NCBI GenBank assembly: GCA_902788575.1 | Contig: CADAKY010000001.1 | Location: 1-64,000 of the forward strand | Direction of reading: 5' to 3' | Source of the DNA: an uncultured bacterium | GTDB taxonomy: Bacteria; Cyanobacteriota; Vampirovibrionia; Gastranaerophilales; Gastranaerophilaceae | Length of the DNA stretch: 64,000 bases | Shown: one piece after another, positions 7,904 to 58,859 of the stretch | Layout of the letters: every line of letters starts with the position of its first letter | How positions within the stretch are numbered: position 1 is the first letter of the stretch | Made by a program: the position numbers and the translations under genes | Notes under the pieces: model-generated | Told to the model about the DNA's origin: nothing | The model's input: only the letters and a program-made list of their open reading frames with translations | Databases searched by the model: none

Positions 7904-8548
7904 TTATTTTTTCATAACAAGTTTAAGTTCAACTCTTCTGCTTTTGTTATAGTTTTCTTTTCCGTTTTCTATAATAGGATTTGAGTAGCTTGCGCCTTCA
8001 ACGGTTATCATTTTGTGAAGCTTATCGCCGTTTTGTTTGTTATAAGGGGTATTCATCATGTAGTCTGCTACCGTATAAGCACGTTTAAGGCTTAATTCCA
8101 TATTTTTCATATACTGTTCGTCTTTTGAATATTTACCCTTGTATGTTTGAGAATCAGTATGACCTTCAATTATAATTTTATCAATATTTTTGCTCATATA
8201 TTCATTGGAGAAAAGCGAATTTAAATAAGCGGGAGCAAATTTTGCCAAATAATCTTTTCCCTTTGGTGAAAGCTCCCAGCTGTTAAGTTCAAACAGTGAT
8301 AAATCCTGTATTTTTACGACCCCTGAAGATACAACGGCATCAATATTCTGCTCCTTTAAAGTTTCTTCAAGAGCTTCCGCTGCGCGTTTTTGTTCAAGTT
8401 TTTCCTGTATCTGCTCATAATAACTTGTCATATATGTATAGAAAAACAGAACCATAAATACCAGCACCAATGCAGTCATCAAATCTGTCATTGTAACCCA
8501 GAATATATTATTTTCGTTTCCGTCATCTTTTTTTGGTCTTATGCGCAT
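7904..8548 (-). CDS. ZorB/MotB-like protein with OmpA peptidoglycan-binding domain
   Basis: 214 residues. One membrane helix (about 16-37) begins MTDLMTALVLVF: D22 sits where MotB and ZorB have the proton-binding aspartate. A short coiled segment (40-65) leads to an OmpA/MotB domain with GHTDS at 129-133, a helix around 150-165 and NKSRRVEL at 201-208. The whole is the layout of a stator B subunit anchored to peptidoglycan. The start of the helix (TDLM rather than the ADFM of flagellar MotB) is closer to ZorB of Zorya anti-phage systems. It follows its A-type partner by 12 bases. No flagellar gene is in the window. Family call firm, Zorya link inferred. Confidence 0.85.
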   Translation of the reverse strand: MRIRPKKDDGNENNIFWVTMTDLMTALVLVFMVLFFYTYMTSYYEQIQEKLEQKRAAEALEETLKEQNIDAVVSSGVVKIQDLSLFELNSWELSPKGKDYLAKFAPAYLNSLFSNEYMSKNIDKIIIEGHTDSQTYKGKYSKDEQYMKNMELSLKRAYTVADYMMNTPYNKQNGDKLHKMITVEGASYSNPIIENGKENYNKSRRVELKLVMKK

Positions 8549-8560
8549 TTAAAACCTTTT

Positions 8561-9430
8561 CTAAAATAATTTGTCTACAATATCTCCGCCGTTATTTTTG
8601 CCAATGTTTTCATTAAGCTTGTTAAGACTGTACAAAATGTTTTCCATATAAGGTACTGTTGTTTTTGTAAGGCTTGACGCTACTGCATTAGCAAGGTCTT
8701 CGGGAAGAGTTTTTAGCAGTTTTTCATTTTTGATATTTTGTGTTTTTGATTCTGTTACAAGGTCAATAAGGAATTTTTCGCTCGTTACAACATCAAAAAT
8801 TCTTATGAATTCTTTTTGGATTGCAAGATAGTATTTTTTGCACATTCTGTTATATAGAGTTTTTTCGATTAGCATAAACAGAAGAGAAAAGCCTACTGCA
8901 AACACTGAGCATAGTGCAGCTATTTGAATATTTGCAATCAATTCATTCAGAGAGTTCCCGACTTCCGTATCAACAGCGAGATTGACTGCAGAAAAAGCAA
9001 CAGCCATTTTCATAAAAGTAAAAAACGGACCTAATCCTGTTAATATTGTAGGAATAATTTGTATAAATTTATGATTGATTTTTGAAAATATGAGCGTTTC
9101 TTCATTGAAAAAATATGACGCATCAACAGTCAGGCAAATATCGTTAGACTTTGCATTCTGAGCGGTTATATATAATTTTTCGGGATAAATCAGAGCTTTT
9201 TTAAAATCTTCCCATATTGTAGAAGTATAACTGTCGGAATTCATAAATTCATCGAGTTCATTAAATCGGTATGAAAGTTCTTTTTTGCTTATTCCTGCAA
9301 GAAAATCGAATACGGATTTAAGGTGTTGTTCAACTTTTGCATAATTTCTTACGACCAATAGTATAAAAAACAAGAAGCTTGCAGTAATAATTAATATTGC
9401 AGGTTCTAACAGTATTTTTGTAAAACTCAT
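8561..9430 (-). CDS. ZorA/MotA-like proton channel subunit, short tail
   Basis: 289 residues. One N-terminal membrane helix (about 10-28), a cytoplasmic segment, then two helices (about 123-148 and 165-188) with LTGLGPFFTFM, the MotA/ExbB-type channel motif as found in ZorA. The region after the last helix is only about 100 residues, whereas Zorya ZorA proteins carry a long helical tail of several hundred residues. AGGAGG precedes the ATG. It heads a two-gene unit with the ZorB-like gene and is divergent from the 1095-residue gene at 9489. Alternatives are an ExbB/TolQ-type energiser, but the MotB-like partner argues against that. Confidence 0.78.
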   Translation of the reverse strand: MSFTKILLEPAILIITASFLFFILLVVRNYAKVEQHLKSVFDFLAGISKKELSYRFNELDEFMNSDSYTSTIWEDFKKALIYPEKLYITAQNAKSNDICLTVDASYFFNEETLIFSKINHKFIQIIPTILTGLGPFFTFMKMAVAFSAVNLAVDTEVGNSLNELIANIQIAALCSVFAVGFSLLFMLIEKTLYNRMCKKYYLAIQKEFIRIFDVVTSEKFLIDLVTESKTQNIKNEKLLKTLPEDLANAVASSLTKTTVPYMENILYSLNKLNENIGKNNGGDIVDKLF

Positions 9431-9475
9431 CTTTTCCCCTCCTTATAAAGTATAGCATAATACTCCGTTTTAGAC

Positions 9476-9481
9476 TATAAT
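9476..9481 (+). promoter_or_regulatory. -10 box of a leaderless transcript
   Basis: TATAAT ends 7 bases before the ATG at 9489, and no Shine-Dalgarno sequence lies between. Transcription would start at or next to the ATG. The site lies in the 58-base space shared with the divergent ZorA-like gene. Confidence 0.55.
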
Positions 9482-9488
9482 TTTCTGT

Positions 9489-12400
9489 ATGGAATGTCCA
9501 AAATGCCATAAAATAATTGCTGATAATTTAACGGCGTGTCCGCACTGTCATAAGGTGCTTTCACTGGTGTGTCCTAATTGTCATACAATAGGTCAGAATC
9601 CTGTTTGTCAGAATTGCGGATATATCATTTTGGAAAAATGTTCAAAATGCGGAAAGACTGTTTCTACAAGCGTTCAGAATTGTAAATGCGGTTTTCCGAC
9701 TAAAACGAGTGTTGCATATAAAGAATGCGAGTCTGATGAATTTGCATCAATTTCAGTTACGGTAGCTTCTTTAAAAGCAATCCGCCGTCATCTTGCTTCT
9801 GCGGAATTGTTCGCAAAATTTAAGACAAAACTGAAAAACATGCTTTCCGCTCAATTCAGAAATATAGAAGGAAATATTATAACGTATGGTGACACTTACG
9901 TTATTAATATGAATAAAGAGCTTTCTTTTCCGACTTCTGCCGATAAAGCGGTCAGAATTGCGCTTAAGCTCGTGAATGCCTGTTCTGAATTAAACCTGAA
10001 AGTTCAGGAAGAATTGGGTACTCCGTTAAAGCTCACTATTAAAATTATAAAGAAAAATGCCGAGGAACTGCTTGAAAACAAAACATATCAAACAAATGTA
10101 AAACCTTTGACAATATCAAAAAATGAAAAAAAATATTTGAAGGGCAGTCAGATTATAATTGACGAATTTGTGCAGGATGCAATAGGCAAAGATTACAAAA
10201 CGGATTCGCTTTATACAGTGGAAGAAAACGGTTTATCTGTTGTTTTTTATGAGATTAAATTGGACAATTATATACTTCCTCCCGATAAAGAAGAAGATAT
10301 TCCGGTCGAAGAGCTTCCGGCTGCAGTTGAAAATAATGTTTCTGAAAAAAAGGAAGAGGAAGGACTTTACGATTTTAAGATATTTAATATTAATGCAAAA
10401 TGTAATTTTGAAAAAACTTCCAATATTTTATCAAAACTCGGAACAAATAAAATTCTTGCAATAAGAGCTGACAAAACACTTCAACCCAGAACCTCGGAAA
10501 TTGTTGATTTTTATAAAAAGCAAGACAAAAGAGTTATCAGAATTTTTTGTTCGGAAGAAACGGCATACAGACCTTGGAGTTTAATGTGTGAAATATATAG
10601 ACAGTATTTTGGTTTGTCATTCCATAATTCTCTGATACCAAAAGATTTTAAGCCAAAAGCATTTCCTGAGCTTGCAAAATTGATATTTAATAATGTTCGT
10701 CAATCTTCTACGCCTGAAGACGCAAGGTTTGCATATATGGATGATTTTGTAAGGTTTTTGTCTGTTTTAAAAGATGTTGTAATTATTATTGAAGGATTTG
10801 AATATATTGATGATACTTCGCTTCAAACAATCGAACTTTATTTTGACAATTACAAGAAAATAAATAACAACTTTATTTTTGTTACAGATGAAAATACCGC
10901 TGTCCATTCAAAGATTAAAACCCTTTTGAGAACGCCTGTTTATACGGAAATAAGACCGGAAAGAAACAAAATGGAGGATTTTGTTTCAGAGATAAAAGAA
11001 GATGCTTCTGATTTTATAACCTCTTTCTATTATGAAAAAATTAAAAGCAACTTTGGAGGTTCAAAAATATACTTTGATACTGCAATTGAGTATCTGAAAG
11101 AAAAAGATGTATTGATTTCTTTTGAAGGCAGGCTTCTTGTAAAAAATAATGATTCAGTATTTATTCCGGCTGAGATAGAAGACTTAATCAAAACAAGATT
11201 AAAATTGATGAGTAAAAATACAGATGCATCAATGATTCTCGCGTACTTAGCTCTGATTAATCCGCGCATGGATTATGAACTTTTGGAAAAACTTGAGGTT
11301 AAAGAGGTTCAGAAAAATGTAAATTATCTTGTTAATACCGGATTTGTATACAAAGAGAATAATTTTGTATACTTAAATAATCCTGATTTATTTAAGCCGG
11401 TAATTCTTTCCGGCATGAAGAAGAATGTAATTGAATTTTTAGCAAAAAATATTCTTGCTAAGATAGGAAAAGGATTAGACAGTACAACAACATTGCTTTT
11501 AATGGGCAAACTTGCACTTTATAAAGATGAATATCTTTTGCTATGGAAAAATTCGGAATTTGCAATAAGCACAGGTGACTATGACGCTTATTTAAAGAAT
11601 TCTTTCGGATTTATGACTTTGCTTGAATACATAAAAGGAAATATCAGTGAAGAAGATATAGAAGAACACAAAAAACAGGTTTATCACAATATTCTGATGT
11701 CCCTGTACGCGTATTCTCCGGAAAAAATATATGATATTGAGCAAATTCTGTTGAATGATGCTATCGAAAAAGAAGATAAAGAAAATACCGTAAAACTTTC
11801 TAATCTTATGCTTCAAGGTGCATTAATCAGCGGTAAATACGGAGATGCTTTGGGACTTTTGAATAATATACTGAGAAATATGCCAAATCCAAAGCTCATA
11901 GTGGATGGCGTTATTAATACAAAATTCCTGTTGTTATCTCTTGTAAATATAGAAATCCTTTTTAATGTCGGTGATTTCAAAACTTGTATTGATATATCGA
12001 ACGAACTCTTATCCGTTTTGTCTCCGGAAATTCTGGAAAAAATTAAGCCCGCAAGCTTCTCTATGAATCTTTTTGTCGGACACCTGACTGATACCCTCAG
12101 ACTTGGTGCAATCGGGTATATTCTGTCTCTTGATGACGGCTTGGATACATATCTGGATAAAATAAAAACCGCACTGGCGGAGGACTTGCCGGACAGAGAT
12201 ACTTTAATTTGCGTGAAAAACTTTTTATCGGGAGAAGATGTATCTTTGAAGGATGTTGAAAATCTGACACCGTTTTCAAAGATTTTATACCTTATTATAG
12301 AAGAATTCTCTGAGGAGAATATTAATTATGCTGATTTTGCTCAGAATATTTATCAGGCAAAATTACTTGCTTCCGATGTAAGTCAGCCGTTTTTGGAAAC

Positions 12401-12776
12401 TTTATGTGAATTATTTATTTCATACGCTTATCAAAAGGCAGGTGTATATAAGAAGGCAGAAAGTATTTATAAAGATATAAGAGAAAAAGCTGAAAATTCA
12501 TCAAACATAAATATAATGCTTCTTGCCAGATATTTTATGTCTGCTTTGAAAATTGAAAAAGGAGAAGTTGAGGGCGGAATGCTTATTATAAATGATACGC
12601 TTGCGTTCATAAGAGATAACGCAGAACAGGAAATTCTTGTTTCCGCTCTTTTGAAAAAGTTACTCATAGATACTGCAGAAAAAGAAAATCTGTCATTTAT
12701 AGATTTGGAAACAGAGAACCGGAGATTGCTTCAGCTTGCGCCGGACGGCAAACTTAAAAGATTCGGAATCGGCTGA
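9489..12776 (+). CDS. Zinc-ribbon / degenerate cyclase / degenerate STAND ATPase / helical repeat protein
   Basis: 1095 residues, cytoplasmic. Twelve cysteines in pairs (C3-C6, C17-C20, C28-C31, C40-C43, C51-C54, C65-C67) form about three zinc ribbons. Residues 85-190 follow the pattern of a class III nucleotide cyclase, with YGDTY at 133-137, but the first metal Asp is lost (TVASL at 91-95). Residues 300-480 look like a STAND-type ATPase: VVIIIEGFEYID (430-441) stands at Walker B, yet the expected P-loop near 320-335 lacks GxxxxGK(S/T). The rest is alpha-helical and TPR-like. Intact relatives are known as zinc ribbon-cyclase-AAA-TPR regulators. It is divergent from the ZorAB-like pair. Confidence 0.8.
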   Translation: MECPKCHKIIADNLTACPHCHKVLSLVCPNCHTIGQNPVCQNCGYIILEKCSKCGKTVSTSVQNCKCGFPTKTSVAYKECESDEFASISVTVASLKAIRRHLASAELFAKFKTKLKNMLSAQFRNIEGNIITYGDTYVINMNKELSFPTSADKAVRIALKLVNACSELNLKVQEELGTPLKLTIKIIKKNAEELLENKTYQTNVKPLTISKNEKKYLKGSQIIIDEFVQDAIGKDYKTDSLYTVEENGLSVVFYEIKLDNYILPPDKEEDIPVEELPAAVENNVSEKKEEEGLYDFKIFNINAKCNFEKTSNILSKLGTNKILAIRADKTLQPRTSEIVDFYKKQDKRVIRIFCSEETAYRPWSLMCEIYRQYFGLSFHNSLIPKDFKPKAFPELAKLIFNNVRQSSTPEDARFAYMDDFVRFLSVLKDVVIIIEGFEYIDDTSLQTIELYFDNYKKINNNFIFVTDENTAVHSKIKTLLRTPVYTEIRPERNKMEDFVSEIKEDASDFITSFYYEKIKSNFGGSKIYFDTAIEYLKEKDVLISFEGRLLVKNNDSVFIPAEIEDLIKTRLKLMSKNTDASMILAYLALINPRMDYELLEKLEVKEVQKNVNYLVNTGFVYKENNFVYLNNPDLFKPVILSGMKKNVIEFLAKNILAKIGKGLDSTTTLLLMGKLALYKDEYLLLWKNSEFAISTGDYDAYLKNSFGFMTLLEYIKGNISEEDIEEHKKQVYHNILMSLYAYSPEKIYDIEQILLNDAIEKEDKENTVKLSNLMLQGALISGKYGDALGLLNNILRNMPNPKLIVDGVINTKFLLLSLVNIEILFNVGDFKTCIDISNELLSVLSPEILEKIKPASFSMNLFVGHLTDTLRLGAIGYILSLDDGLDTYLDKIKTALAEDLPDRDTLICVKNFLSGEDVSLKDVENLTPFSKILYLIIEEFSEENINYADFAQNIYQAKLLASDVSQPFLETLCELFISYAYQKAGVYKKAESIYKDIREKAENSSNINIMLLARYFMSALKIEKGEVEGGMLIINDTLAFIRDNAEQEILVSALLKKLLIDTAEKENLSFIDLETENRRLLQLAPDGKLKRFGIG

Positions 12777-56867: not shown

Positions 56868-58859
56868 ATGAACAAAATTAAATATTTTTCTATTTCTATA
56901 ATTGTCTTACTTTTATTAAGTTTTGTCTACTTTGTTACATATAATTTTGTAGAACCGAAAACTTATGATTTTATGACAAAACATGTACTTACTGAAAAAC
57001 TATCCTTCGATAAAGAAAAAAATGTATACGGGCATGACGATATTATTCTGGTAGTTATTGATGATATAACAGCTCAAAAATACAGATGGCCCTGGAAAAG
57101 AGAATTATTTTGCAAAATATTTGACTACTTTTTAGATTATGCACACCCCAAAATAATAGTACATGACGCTCTTTTAGCAACTCTTGATACAGAAAATCCG
57201 GAGTCAGACAAAAAATTATTTAAAACTTTCGGCAGGTTTAATAATCTGGTTGAGGGTTTTATGTTAAATAATTACGAATGGGATGATGCTGAAAAAGGTA
57301 AGATTTATGATAAAAAATTCGAAAAGAAATTTGGTCTTAAGAATTATATTTCGGAAATTGAATTTAAATCAGATTGGCTTAATAGTCTGGTAGCTTTTCC
57401 TGATGAATATTTTAATACAATTAGTGATGTAGGTTCTGTTATTGTTGATTCCGGTTATATAAATAATTATGTATTCAAAGATGATGTAATAAGAACTTAC
57501 GATTACCTCGTATCATATAAAAACAGTCTATACCCTTCACTTGCTCTGCAAACATTTATTAAAATGAACAATTATCCGCAAATAATTGTAAAAAAAGATA
57601 CATTTGAATTTCCTGATTATAATTACAAAATAAAATTCAATAATAATAATTACAGAATAAACACTCCTATAAAATTTTATAAATTATCAAACAGCGTTTA
57701 TTCTCACCAAACAGTTTCTGCCCTGAGCGTCATGGATTGTTATGACAAATCGGTTCAAGCAAAAAAAGATGTATGTAACGGTGCGGATTTCTTTAAAGAT
57801 AAAATTGTAATAGTAGGCGCAAATGTAGCAGCCGGCGAAGGATTGTGGGATACTGCGAATACTTCTATGAGTGCACGACAGGCGGGAGTGGACATTCAGG
57901 CTACAGCAATTGATAACATTGTACATAATGATTTTCTGAAAATTTTACCTCAATGGTTAAATATACTAATCATGATAGTTATAATGCTCTTTATATATTA
58001 CACAATCAGAACACACGAACTATTCAAAGCAATAACTCTTACCCTTTCAACAATAATTTTGTACATACTCTCAAGTGCCGTTTGTTTTTATCATGCAATT
58101 ATCGTCAATATAGCAGCACCGACAGCGATGTTTATTGTTACAATGATTATTGCCTATGTACACAGATACACTATAGAAAATAAAAACAAGAAGAAAGTGG
58201 AAAACCTCTTAGGTAAATATATGTCAGAAGACGTTATGAAAAATTTAATCCAAGATATTGACAACCTCGGGCTGGGCGGGAAAAAAGCAATAGTTTCAGT
58301 CTTATTTTCTGATATAAGAGGATTTACTTCAATGTCGGAAAAAATGTCCGCAGAAGAAGTTATGACAAACCTGAACGAATATTTTTCGGCAATGGAGCCT
58401 ATTGTAAGAAAACATAACGGAATTATTAACAAATTTATCGGAGATGCCGTAATGGCAATATTCGGTGAACCTATCCATGATGAAAATCATGCACAAAATG
58501 CCGTCCTTTGCGGATTAGAAATGCTGCAGAAAGTTCAGGAGCTGAACAAACAATGGGAAGAAGAAGGAAAACAAAAAATTGAAATTGGTATAGGTATCAA
58601 TACCGGTGAAGTTTTTGTTGGCAATATTGGTTCTGAAAAAAGAATGGAATATACTGTTATCGGTGATACAGTAAATCTTGCAAGCAGACTGGAAAGCTAC
58701 AATAAAACATTCAACACAAAAATGTTAATAAGCGCATCTACGTTTGAAGAATCAAAAAATATTGTTGAAGCAAGAGAAATTACTGATGTTGAAATCAGAG
58801 GAAAAGCTAATAAAATAACTATTTATGATATAATAAAACTGCAAAATGAAGCTTATTAA
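56868..58859 (+). CDS. CHASE2-domain class III adenylate cyclase
   Basis: 663 residues. N-terminal membrane helix, extracytoplasmic CHASE2 sensor (about 40-350), three membrane helices (about 360-430), then a cyclase domain. Metal aspartates are D482 in LFSDIRGFTSMSE and D526 in NKFIGDAVMAIFG; the Lys of NKFIGD and Asp of TVIGDTVNLASR mark ATP rather than GTP as substrate. It should sense an outside signal and make cAMP. Its stop codon overlaps the next gene by 14 bases. Contrast with the decayed domain at 9489. Confidence 0.93.
   Translation: MNKIKYFSISIIVLLLLSFVYFVTYNFVEPKTYDFMTKHVLTEKLSFDKEKNVYGHDDIILVVIDDITAQKYRWPWKRELFCKIFDYFLDYAHPKIIVHDALLATLDTENPESDKKLFKTFGRFNNLVEGFMLNNYEWDDAEKGKIYDKKFEKKFGLKNYISEIEFKSDWLNSLVAFPDEYFNTISDVGSVIVDSGYINNYVFKDDVIRTYDYLVSYKNSLYPSLALQTFIKMNNYPQIIVKKDTFEFPDYNYKIKFNNNNYRINTPIKFYKLSNSVYSHQTVSALSVMDCYDKSVQAKKDVCNGADFFKDKIVIVGANVAAGEGLWDTANTSMSARQAGVDIQATAIDNIVHNDFLKILPQWLNILIMIVIMLFIYYTIRTHELFKAITLTLSTIILYILSSAVCFYHAIIVNIAAPTAMFIVTMIIAYVHRYTIENKNKKKVENLLGKYMSEDVMKNLIQDIDNLGLGGKKAIVSVLFSDIRGFTSMSEKMSAEEVMTNLNEYFSAMEPIVRKHNGIINKFIGDAVMAIFGEPIHDENHAQNAVLCGLEMLQKVQELNKQWEEEGKQKIEIGIGINTGEVFVGNIGSEKRMEYTVIGDTVNLASRLESYNKTFNTKMLISASTFEESKNIVEAREITDVEIRGKANKITIYDIIKLQNEAY

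What the first reader, a model, noticed from the sequence alone, without database searches (positions are those of the whole stretch)
7904..12776. Short-tailed ZorAB-like motor with a divergent multidomain partner and no known Zorya effectors
The minus-strand pair has the MotA/MotB-like layout of ZorA and ZorB, including LTGLGPFFTFM and a membrane Asp (D22) in TDLM, plus an OmpA peptidoglycan domain. No flagellar gene and no ZorC, ZorD or ZorE is near. ZorA-type tails are usually long; this one is about 100 residues. Divergent from it across 58 bases is a 1095-residue zinc-ribbon/cyclase-like/STAND-like/TPR protein. Conserved pairing would suggest an uncharacterised proton-driven signalling or defence system. 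The link is inference from position only.
Basis: partly seen in the sequence, partly recalled or inferred. Interest (0 to 1): 0.8.

Follow-up and report, generated by a model that had tools for sequence, protein, structure and literature searches.

The report
Short-tailed ZorAB motor plus pseudo-STAND partner
A gut-bacterial relative of the ion-driven motor used in Zorya anti-phage defence has lost its long tail and its known effectors, is inherited as an ordinary core gene, and is almost always kept together with one large cytoplasmic protein that looks like a signalling enzyme whose active sites have decayed.

Summary
The genes are real and correctly placed. The pair at 8561-9430 and 7904-8548 (minus strand) belongs to the ZorAB motor family, not MotAB, TolQR or ExbBD: sequence profiles, solved structures, a predicted model and a tree agree. 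It is not a Zorya system: the ZorA tail is short (about 75-95 residues), no Zorya effector is at the locus, and the genes are a vertically inherited core feature of one bacterial order (Gastranaerophilales), found in 105 of 146 sampled genomes. The divergent 1095-residue protein is its partner in a stronger sense than position: a close homologue is in 104 of 105 motor-positive genomes and 0 of 41 motor-negative ones, even where the loci lie hundreds of kilobases apart, and the gene trees match. The one exception is probably an assembly gap. The partner has three zinc ribbons, a cyclase fold without conserved catalytic aspartates, a STAND-like NTPase fold without Walker A, and a TPR superhelix; most paralogues examined keep Walker A. 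Best reading: a housekeeping envelope-to-cytoplasm transducer built from a Zorya-type motor. Coupling is well supported; the mechanism is inferred; a resident defence role is not excluded. Novelty: new variant of a known kind.

The parts
7904..8548 (-). ZorB-like subunit, 214 aa: N-terminal membrane helix with Asp22, C-terminal OmpA-type peptidoglycan-binding domain
8483..8485 (-). codon of Asp22 (TDLM), the ion-binding aspartate equivalent; invariant in 21 homologues
7946..8296 (-). OmpA-type peptidoglycan-binding domain (aa 85-201), with the GHTDS, NxxLSxxRA and SRRVE motifs invariant or nearly so
8561..9430 (-). ZorA-like subunit, 289 aa, short tail; predicted helices 10-45 (TM1), 120-148 (TM2), 154-211 (TM3), tail helices 217-241 and 244-276
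8564..8797 (-). short cytoplasmic tail (aa 212-289)
   Evidence: compare tails of about 270-460 aa in Zorya ZorA (PMC11890865)
8564..8584 (-). C-terminal DIVDKLF motif (family consensus V/I-D-x-L/I-F at or near the C-terminus); candidate docking peptide
9431..9488 (.). 58-nt region between the divergent zorA-like and partner genes
9489..12776 (+). partner protein, 1095 aa
9489..9698 (+). three zinc ribbons (aa 1-70), 12 invariant cysteines
9705..10274 (+). class III cyclase-fold domain (aa 73-262) without the conserved catalytic aspartates
   Evidence: (Z 16.9 to 3r5g, rmsd 2.8 over 167 residues)
10404..11516 (+). STAND-type NTPase-like and winged-helix/arm region (aa 306-676); Walker A lost
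   Evidence: (MalT 8bob Z 15.1, rmsd 5.2 over 361 residues)
11517..12713 (+). TPR superhelix (aa 677-1075)

Best explanation
A three-protein, vertically inherited transducer derived from a ZorAB-type motor. Five ZorA-like and two ZorB-like subunits would form an ion-driven complex in the inner membrane, anchored to peptidoglycan by the ZorB OmpA domain. The state of that complex (ion flow, rotation, or peptidoglycan engagement) is passed through the short ZorA tail and its C-terminal VDxLF motif to the large cytoplasmic partner, most plausibly its TPR/STAND part. The partner has lost the cyclase and Walker A catalytic residues, so it would act as a switchable scaffold or adaptor rather than an enzyme, with zinc ribbons as a possible output end. 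The likely role is housekeeping: sensing or mechanically supporting the cell envelope. Shown here: family membership, short tail, absence of Zorya effectors from the locus, co-retention with the partner, vertical inheritance, loss of the partner's catalytic motifs. Inferred: 5:2 assembly, the direct ZorA-partner contact, the direction of signalling, and the role.
For: Motor family: PADLOC and NCBIfam hits; among solved structures the ZorA profile hits ZorA (E 6e-28) and no MotA, TolQ or ExbB at E up to 1; ZorB profile E 4e-23 to ZorB against 4e-8 to MotB; fold match to 8qyd E 6e-9 against TolQ 0.014; tree. Coupling: strong partner homologue in 104/105 motor-positive and 0/41 motor-negative genomes; in most genera the loci are unlinked (e.g. 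G001, about 890 kb apart), so linkage does not explain it; the exception G069 also lacks the main glgA, the partner's usual neighbour; divergent genus g41 keeps a divergent orthologue; zorA and partner trees share their deep order. Housekeeping: single copy, ZorAB tree shares 8 of 16 splits with a ribosomal tree against a random mean of 0.23; losses of both genes together in at least four f1 lineages if inheritance is vertical. Pseudoenzyme: no Walker A at the P-loop position in 84 unique orthologues, while 4 of 6 paralogues examined have one there; catalytic aspartates not conserved.
Against: No direct evidence of physical contact or of any phenotype. The partner evolves fast (median 56% identity among close relatives against 78% for neighbouring genes), which would also fit an arms race. 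Joint losses are few (3 parsimony changes on the species tree), so lineage effects cannot be fully excluded. ZorA model confidence is moderate and the tail is low (mean pLDDT 74; tail blocks 42-66). The VDxLF motif is not always at the exact C-terminus and is missing in G005.
Confidence: 0.5

Rival explanations
1. A resident anti-phage system: a Zorya-like sensor that replaced ZorC/D or ZorE with a STAND-like effector, now fixed in the lineage.
For: Nearest relatives of the motor are Zorya proteins; the partner's fold resembles STAND proteins including Avs3 and Avs4; the partner evolves unusually fast.
Against: Core, single-copy, vertically inherited, no Zorya effector or other defence operon recognised next to it in the window, no nuclease or other toxic domain recognised, Walker A lost. 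In one genome (G011) a canonical type I Zorya sits beside restriction-like genes while the short-tail set lies elsewhere. Deleting the long ZorA tail abolishes defence in real Zorya systems (PMC11890865).
Confidence: 0.25
2. The motor and the 1095-aa protein do not interact; they are merely co-inherited parts of a broader lineage-specific programme.
For: Only three parsimony changes of presence on the species tree; the partner is next to glgA rather than zorAB in most genera.
Against: Divergent adjacency in lineages as far apart as f4, f5, g19 and g1 and co-retention after the loci separated; matching gene trees; glgA is universal and does not share the pattern.
Confidence: 0.2
3. The partner belongs to glycogen metabolism: in most other genera its gene overlaps or directly precedes glgA, and the motor would feed envelope or energy state into storage control.
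For: Partner-glgA adjacency in loci of g2, g4, g6, g7, g11, g13, g19 and g21.
Against: glgA-type genes occur in all 146 genomes whether or not the motor is present; the window's genus and g14, g15 and g23 lack this adjacency.
Confidence: 0.08
4. The pair is a flagellar stator or a TolQR/ExbBD-type energiser.
For: Same 5:2 motor superfamily.
Against: Profiles and tree place it with ZorAB; the genome has its own flagellar MotAB and ExbBD; presence does not follow flagellar FlhA.
Confidence: 0.02

Closest known systems
Zorya type I ZorAB (PDB 8qyd, 8vvn)
   Same: ZorA membrane core, ZorB aspartate and peptidoglycan-binding domain; ZorA profile E 6e-28, fold E 6e-9
   Different: Tail about 75-95 aa instead of about 460; no ZorC or ZorD at the locus; vertically inherited core gene; a different partner that stays even when unlinked
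Zorya type II ZorAB (PDB 8vvi)
   Same: ZorB is the best solved-structure hit for the ZorB family (E 4e-23)
   Different: No ZorE hit at the locus; ZorA aligns over the type I N-terminal region from residue 23, unlike type II; short tail
STAND signalling ATPases with TPR sensors (6mfv), MalT (8bob), Avs3/Avs4
   Same: Order of NTPase-like, arm and TPR modules and overall fold
   Different: Walker A missing in all orthologues; N-terminal zinc ribbons and cyclase-fold domain added
Class III nucleotidyl cyclases (e.g. P. aeruginosa CyaB 3r5g, S. platensis CyaC)
   Same: Fold of aa 73-262, Z 15-17
   Different: Metal-binding aspartates not conserved; the stretch where the catalytic Asn/Arg helix is expected is poorly ordered in the model
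Zinc-ribbon/STAND/TPR paralogues in the same order (about 980-1195 aa)
   Same: Same general domain order, found in many genomes of the order
   Different: Independent of the motor; 4 of 6 examined keep a Walker A motif; separate clade

Membership tests
ZorAB motor family | ZorA and ZorB sequence/profile similarity exceeding that to MotAB, TolQR, ExbBD | tested here: met
ZorAB motor family | ZorB membrane aspartate and C-terminal peptidoglycan-binding domain | tested here: met
   D22 invariant, OmpA domain E 1.7e-9
ZorAB motor family | A5B2 assembly and ion flow | not testable with these tools
   only monomer prediction available
Zorya defence system | long cytoplasmic ZorA tail (about 270-460 aa), required for defence | tested here: not met
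   289-aa ZorA, tail 75-95 aa; open frames of 120 homologues 289-344 aa; literature
Zorya defence system | ZorC+ZorD, ZorE, or ZorF+ZorG encoded with ZorAB | tested here: not met
   no hit in the partner or in 9 other window proteins; ZorD genome-wide gives only a generic SNF2 helicase, present in all 146 genomes; true ZorD only in G011 beside a separate canonical ZorAB. ZorC, E, F, G not searched genome-wide
Zorya defence system | patchy, mobile, defence-island distribution | tested here: not met
   core in 105/146 genomes, tree congruent with ribosomal proteins
Zorya defence system | protects against phages | not testable with these tools
   needs plaque assays
Flagellar stator MotAB | MotA/MotB family match and flagellar association | tested here: not met
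STAND NTPase | NTPase-arm-sensor fold | tested here: met
STAND NTPase | Walker A nucleotide-binding loop | tested here: not met
   absent at the P-loop position in all 84 unique orthologues
Class III nucleotidyl cyclase | cyclase fold | tested here: met
   Z 16.9 to 3r5g, rmsd 2.8 over 167 residues
Class III nucleotidyl cyclase | two metal-binding aspartates | tested here: not met
   by sequence alignment in the expected strands, the first Asp is absent and the second is kept only in the window's own genus

The most novel reading that the evidence does not exclude
A ZorAB-type ion motor has been domesticated into a housekeeping envelope transducer in Gastranaerophilales, driving or reading a dedicated catalytically dead cyclase/STAND/TPR scaffold through a short docking tail: a kind of motor-based signalling distinct from Zorya defence, flagella, Ton/Tol and gliding.
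Probability: 0.45. Interest if true: 0.8.

Novelty: new variant of a known kind. Interest (0 to 1): 0.62.

Why it matters
Zorya motors are known as phage defence. A stable, short-tailed, effector-less branch kept across a bacterial order, with its own co-retained partner, would show that the ZorAB motor can serve ordinary cell biology and would offer a natural test of what the long Zorya tail and effectors add. It would also give a context for a large family of zinc-ribbon/pseudo-cyclase/STAND proteins, and it warns that ZorAB profile hits alone should not be counted as defence systems.

Tried and rejected
Flagellar or TolQR/ExbBD identity: rejected by profiles, fold and tree. Canonical Zorya: rejected on tail, effectors and distribution. 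ZorD genome-wide hits: rejected as a generic SNF2 helicase, partial and present in all 146 genomes. Glycogen link through glgA: adjacency is real in many genera but glgA is universal, so no profile support. Flagellar FlhA as a correlate: motor-positive genomes occur with and without the flagellar type. Operon with DUF711: downstream of zorB in many other genera but absent in this genus. Promoter and terminator scan of the locus: no more sites than shuffles, uninformative. A scan with the full partner alignment found no usable pattern, so the zorA alignment was used. In the VIA-align results families that are not listed are not excluded. Literature searches found no description of this pair or of the partner family; the library lacks many subscription papers.

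Full report
Observation. Close relatives recovered by name are Candidatus Gastranaerophilales and other Melainabacteria metagenome assemblies, so the window almost certainly comes from that order.

What the motor is. PADLOC models give ZorB E 3e-51 and ZorA E 3e-27; NCBIfam ZorA subfamily NF033915 scores 87.8 bits, just under its cut-off of 100. A profile of 21 homologues searched against all solved structures hits ZorA first (8qyd E 6e-28, 8vvn E 9e-20) with no MotA, TolQ or ExbB at E up to 1; the ZorB profile gives ZorB 4e-23 and 2e-19 against MotB 4e-8. A model of ZorA (mean pLDDT 74) matches type I ZorA (Foldseek E 6e-9; TolQ only 0.014). In a tree of the membrane core all short forms make one clade (support 96) next to long Zorya-type ZorA, away from the genome's own MotA and ExbB. 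D22 of ZorB and core Thr/Ser residues of ZorA are invariant.

What it lacks. ZorA is 289 aa; open frames of 120 homologues span 289-344 aa. After the last membrane helix there are two short helices and a conserved C-terminal V/I-D-x-L/I-F motif. Zorya ZorA tails run from about residue 237 to 696 (type I) or 100 to 378 (type II), and tail deletion abolishes defence (PMC11890865). No Zorya effector profile hits the partner or nine other window proteins. ZorD across 146 genomes gives only a generic SNF2-type match in every genome; the one true ZorD is in G011, beside a separate canonical ZorA (542 aa), ZorB and ZorC. That genome carries both systems, which shows they are distinct.

Distribution. 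The short ZorA is in 105 of 146 genomes of the order, single copy. In the class and phylum samples the short form appears only in this order; hits elsewhere are few and lie in long frames of about 454-746 aa. A ZorA+ZorB tree shares 8 of 16 splits with a ribosomal-protein tree (random labels: mean 0.23, maximum 3 in 2000 trials), including the early position of g14/g23. Vertical inheritance with losses is the simplest account. This is not how defence systems usually behave.

The partner link. Strong partner homologues (E below 1e-25) occur in 104 of 105 motor-positive and 0 of 41 motor-negative genomes (counts made from the printed tables). In close relatives (ZorA identity 62% or more) with enough upstream sequence, 52 of 56 loci have the partner divergent and adjacent, one has a single gene inserted, and three do not have it adjacent. 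Adjacency recurs in distant lineages (G097, G005, G011). In most other genera the loci are far apart, yet both stay. The exception, G069, also lacks the main glgA, which is the partner's neighbour in sister genomes, so a missing contig is likely. Genus g41 keeps a divergent orthologue without the zinc ribbons that groups with the orthologues, in the same place as g41 ZorA in the motor tree. On a 41-genome tree the pattern needs 3 changes under equal costs; if inheritance is vertical, at least four joint losses inside the family. That is good but not overwhelming replication.

The partner protein. The model is confident (mean pLDDT 84.8). Residues 1-70 are three zinc ribbons with 12 invariant cysteines. 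Residues 73-262 have a class III cyclase fold (Z 16.9 to CyaB, rmsd 2.8 over 167 residues), but the first catalytic aspartate is absent and the second is kept only in this genus. Residues 306-676 resemble a STAND NTPase and arm (MalT, 6mfv) without a Walker A motif: a pattern search of 84 unique orthologues found three chance matches near residue 570-600 and none at the P-loop position; basal members keep remnants such as GETNTGK, and four of six paralogues have an intact motif there. Residues 677-1075 are a TPR superhelix. The protein evolves fast: median identity 56% against 78% for neighbouring genes in the same set of locus pairs.

Rivals and limits. A defence role stays possible because the motor's nearest kin are Zorya proteins and the partner is fast-evolving with an Avs-like fold, but core vertical inheritance, the short tail and lost catalytic sites argue against it. 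A flagellar role is contradicted: the genome has its own MotAB and presence does not follow flagellar FlhA. The glgA adjacency in other genera is unexplained and could hint at a metabolic output, but glgA is universal. Nothing here shows a physical contact, an ion current or a phenotype; complexes could not be modelled with the tools.

Verdict. A ZorAB-derived motor with a dedicated pseudo-enzyme partner, most likely a housekeeping envelope transducer. Family membership and absence of Zorya hallmarks at the locus: high confidence. Functional coupling of motor and partner: about 0.8. Specific mechanism: about 0.5 or lower.

Noticed in passing
L077 1-15086 (G011:C200): Canonical type I Zorya (ZorA 542 aa, ZorB, ZorC, ZorD 716 bits) beside restriction-modification-like genes, in a genome that also carries the short-tail system (L064).
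   Followed up: yes
L207, L208, L209, L212, L213, L214, L217, L218, L219, L063: The partner gene directly precedes or overlaps glgA (glycogen synthase) in most other genera of the family.
   Followed up: partly
L063, L066, L068-L072, L074-L076, L080, L081: A DUF711 (UPF0210) gene lies immediately downstream of zorB in many other genera, often followed by a small conserved ~110-aa protein with no Pfam match.
   Followed up: no
L220-L225: Paralogous zinc-ribbon proteins of about 980-1195 aa, four of six with Walker A at the expected place, independent of the motor.
   Followed up: partly
G000:C15:2314-4305 and G000:C19:646-2622: Two FlhA-type export proteins; the second, lower-scoring type (about 700-735 bits) is listed for most genomes of the order, including ones without the flagellar type, suggesting a separate export apparatus.
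   Followed up: no
window 56868-58859: Membrane (CHASE2-like) protein with an apparently intact class III cyclase domain that scores against Pycsar cyclase models.
   Followed up: no
L001 and L002: The same genome has flagellar MotAB and an ExbB with two ExbD-like proteins and a TonB-like protein: three kinds of ion-driven motor in one cell.
   Followed up: yes
L205:6728-9847 and L266: Genus g41 partner orthologue has lost the zinc ribbons, while its ZorA ends in SQLFE instead of VDxLF.
   Followed up: partly
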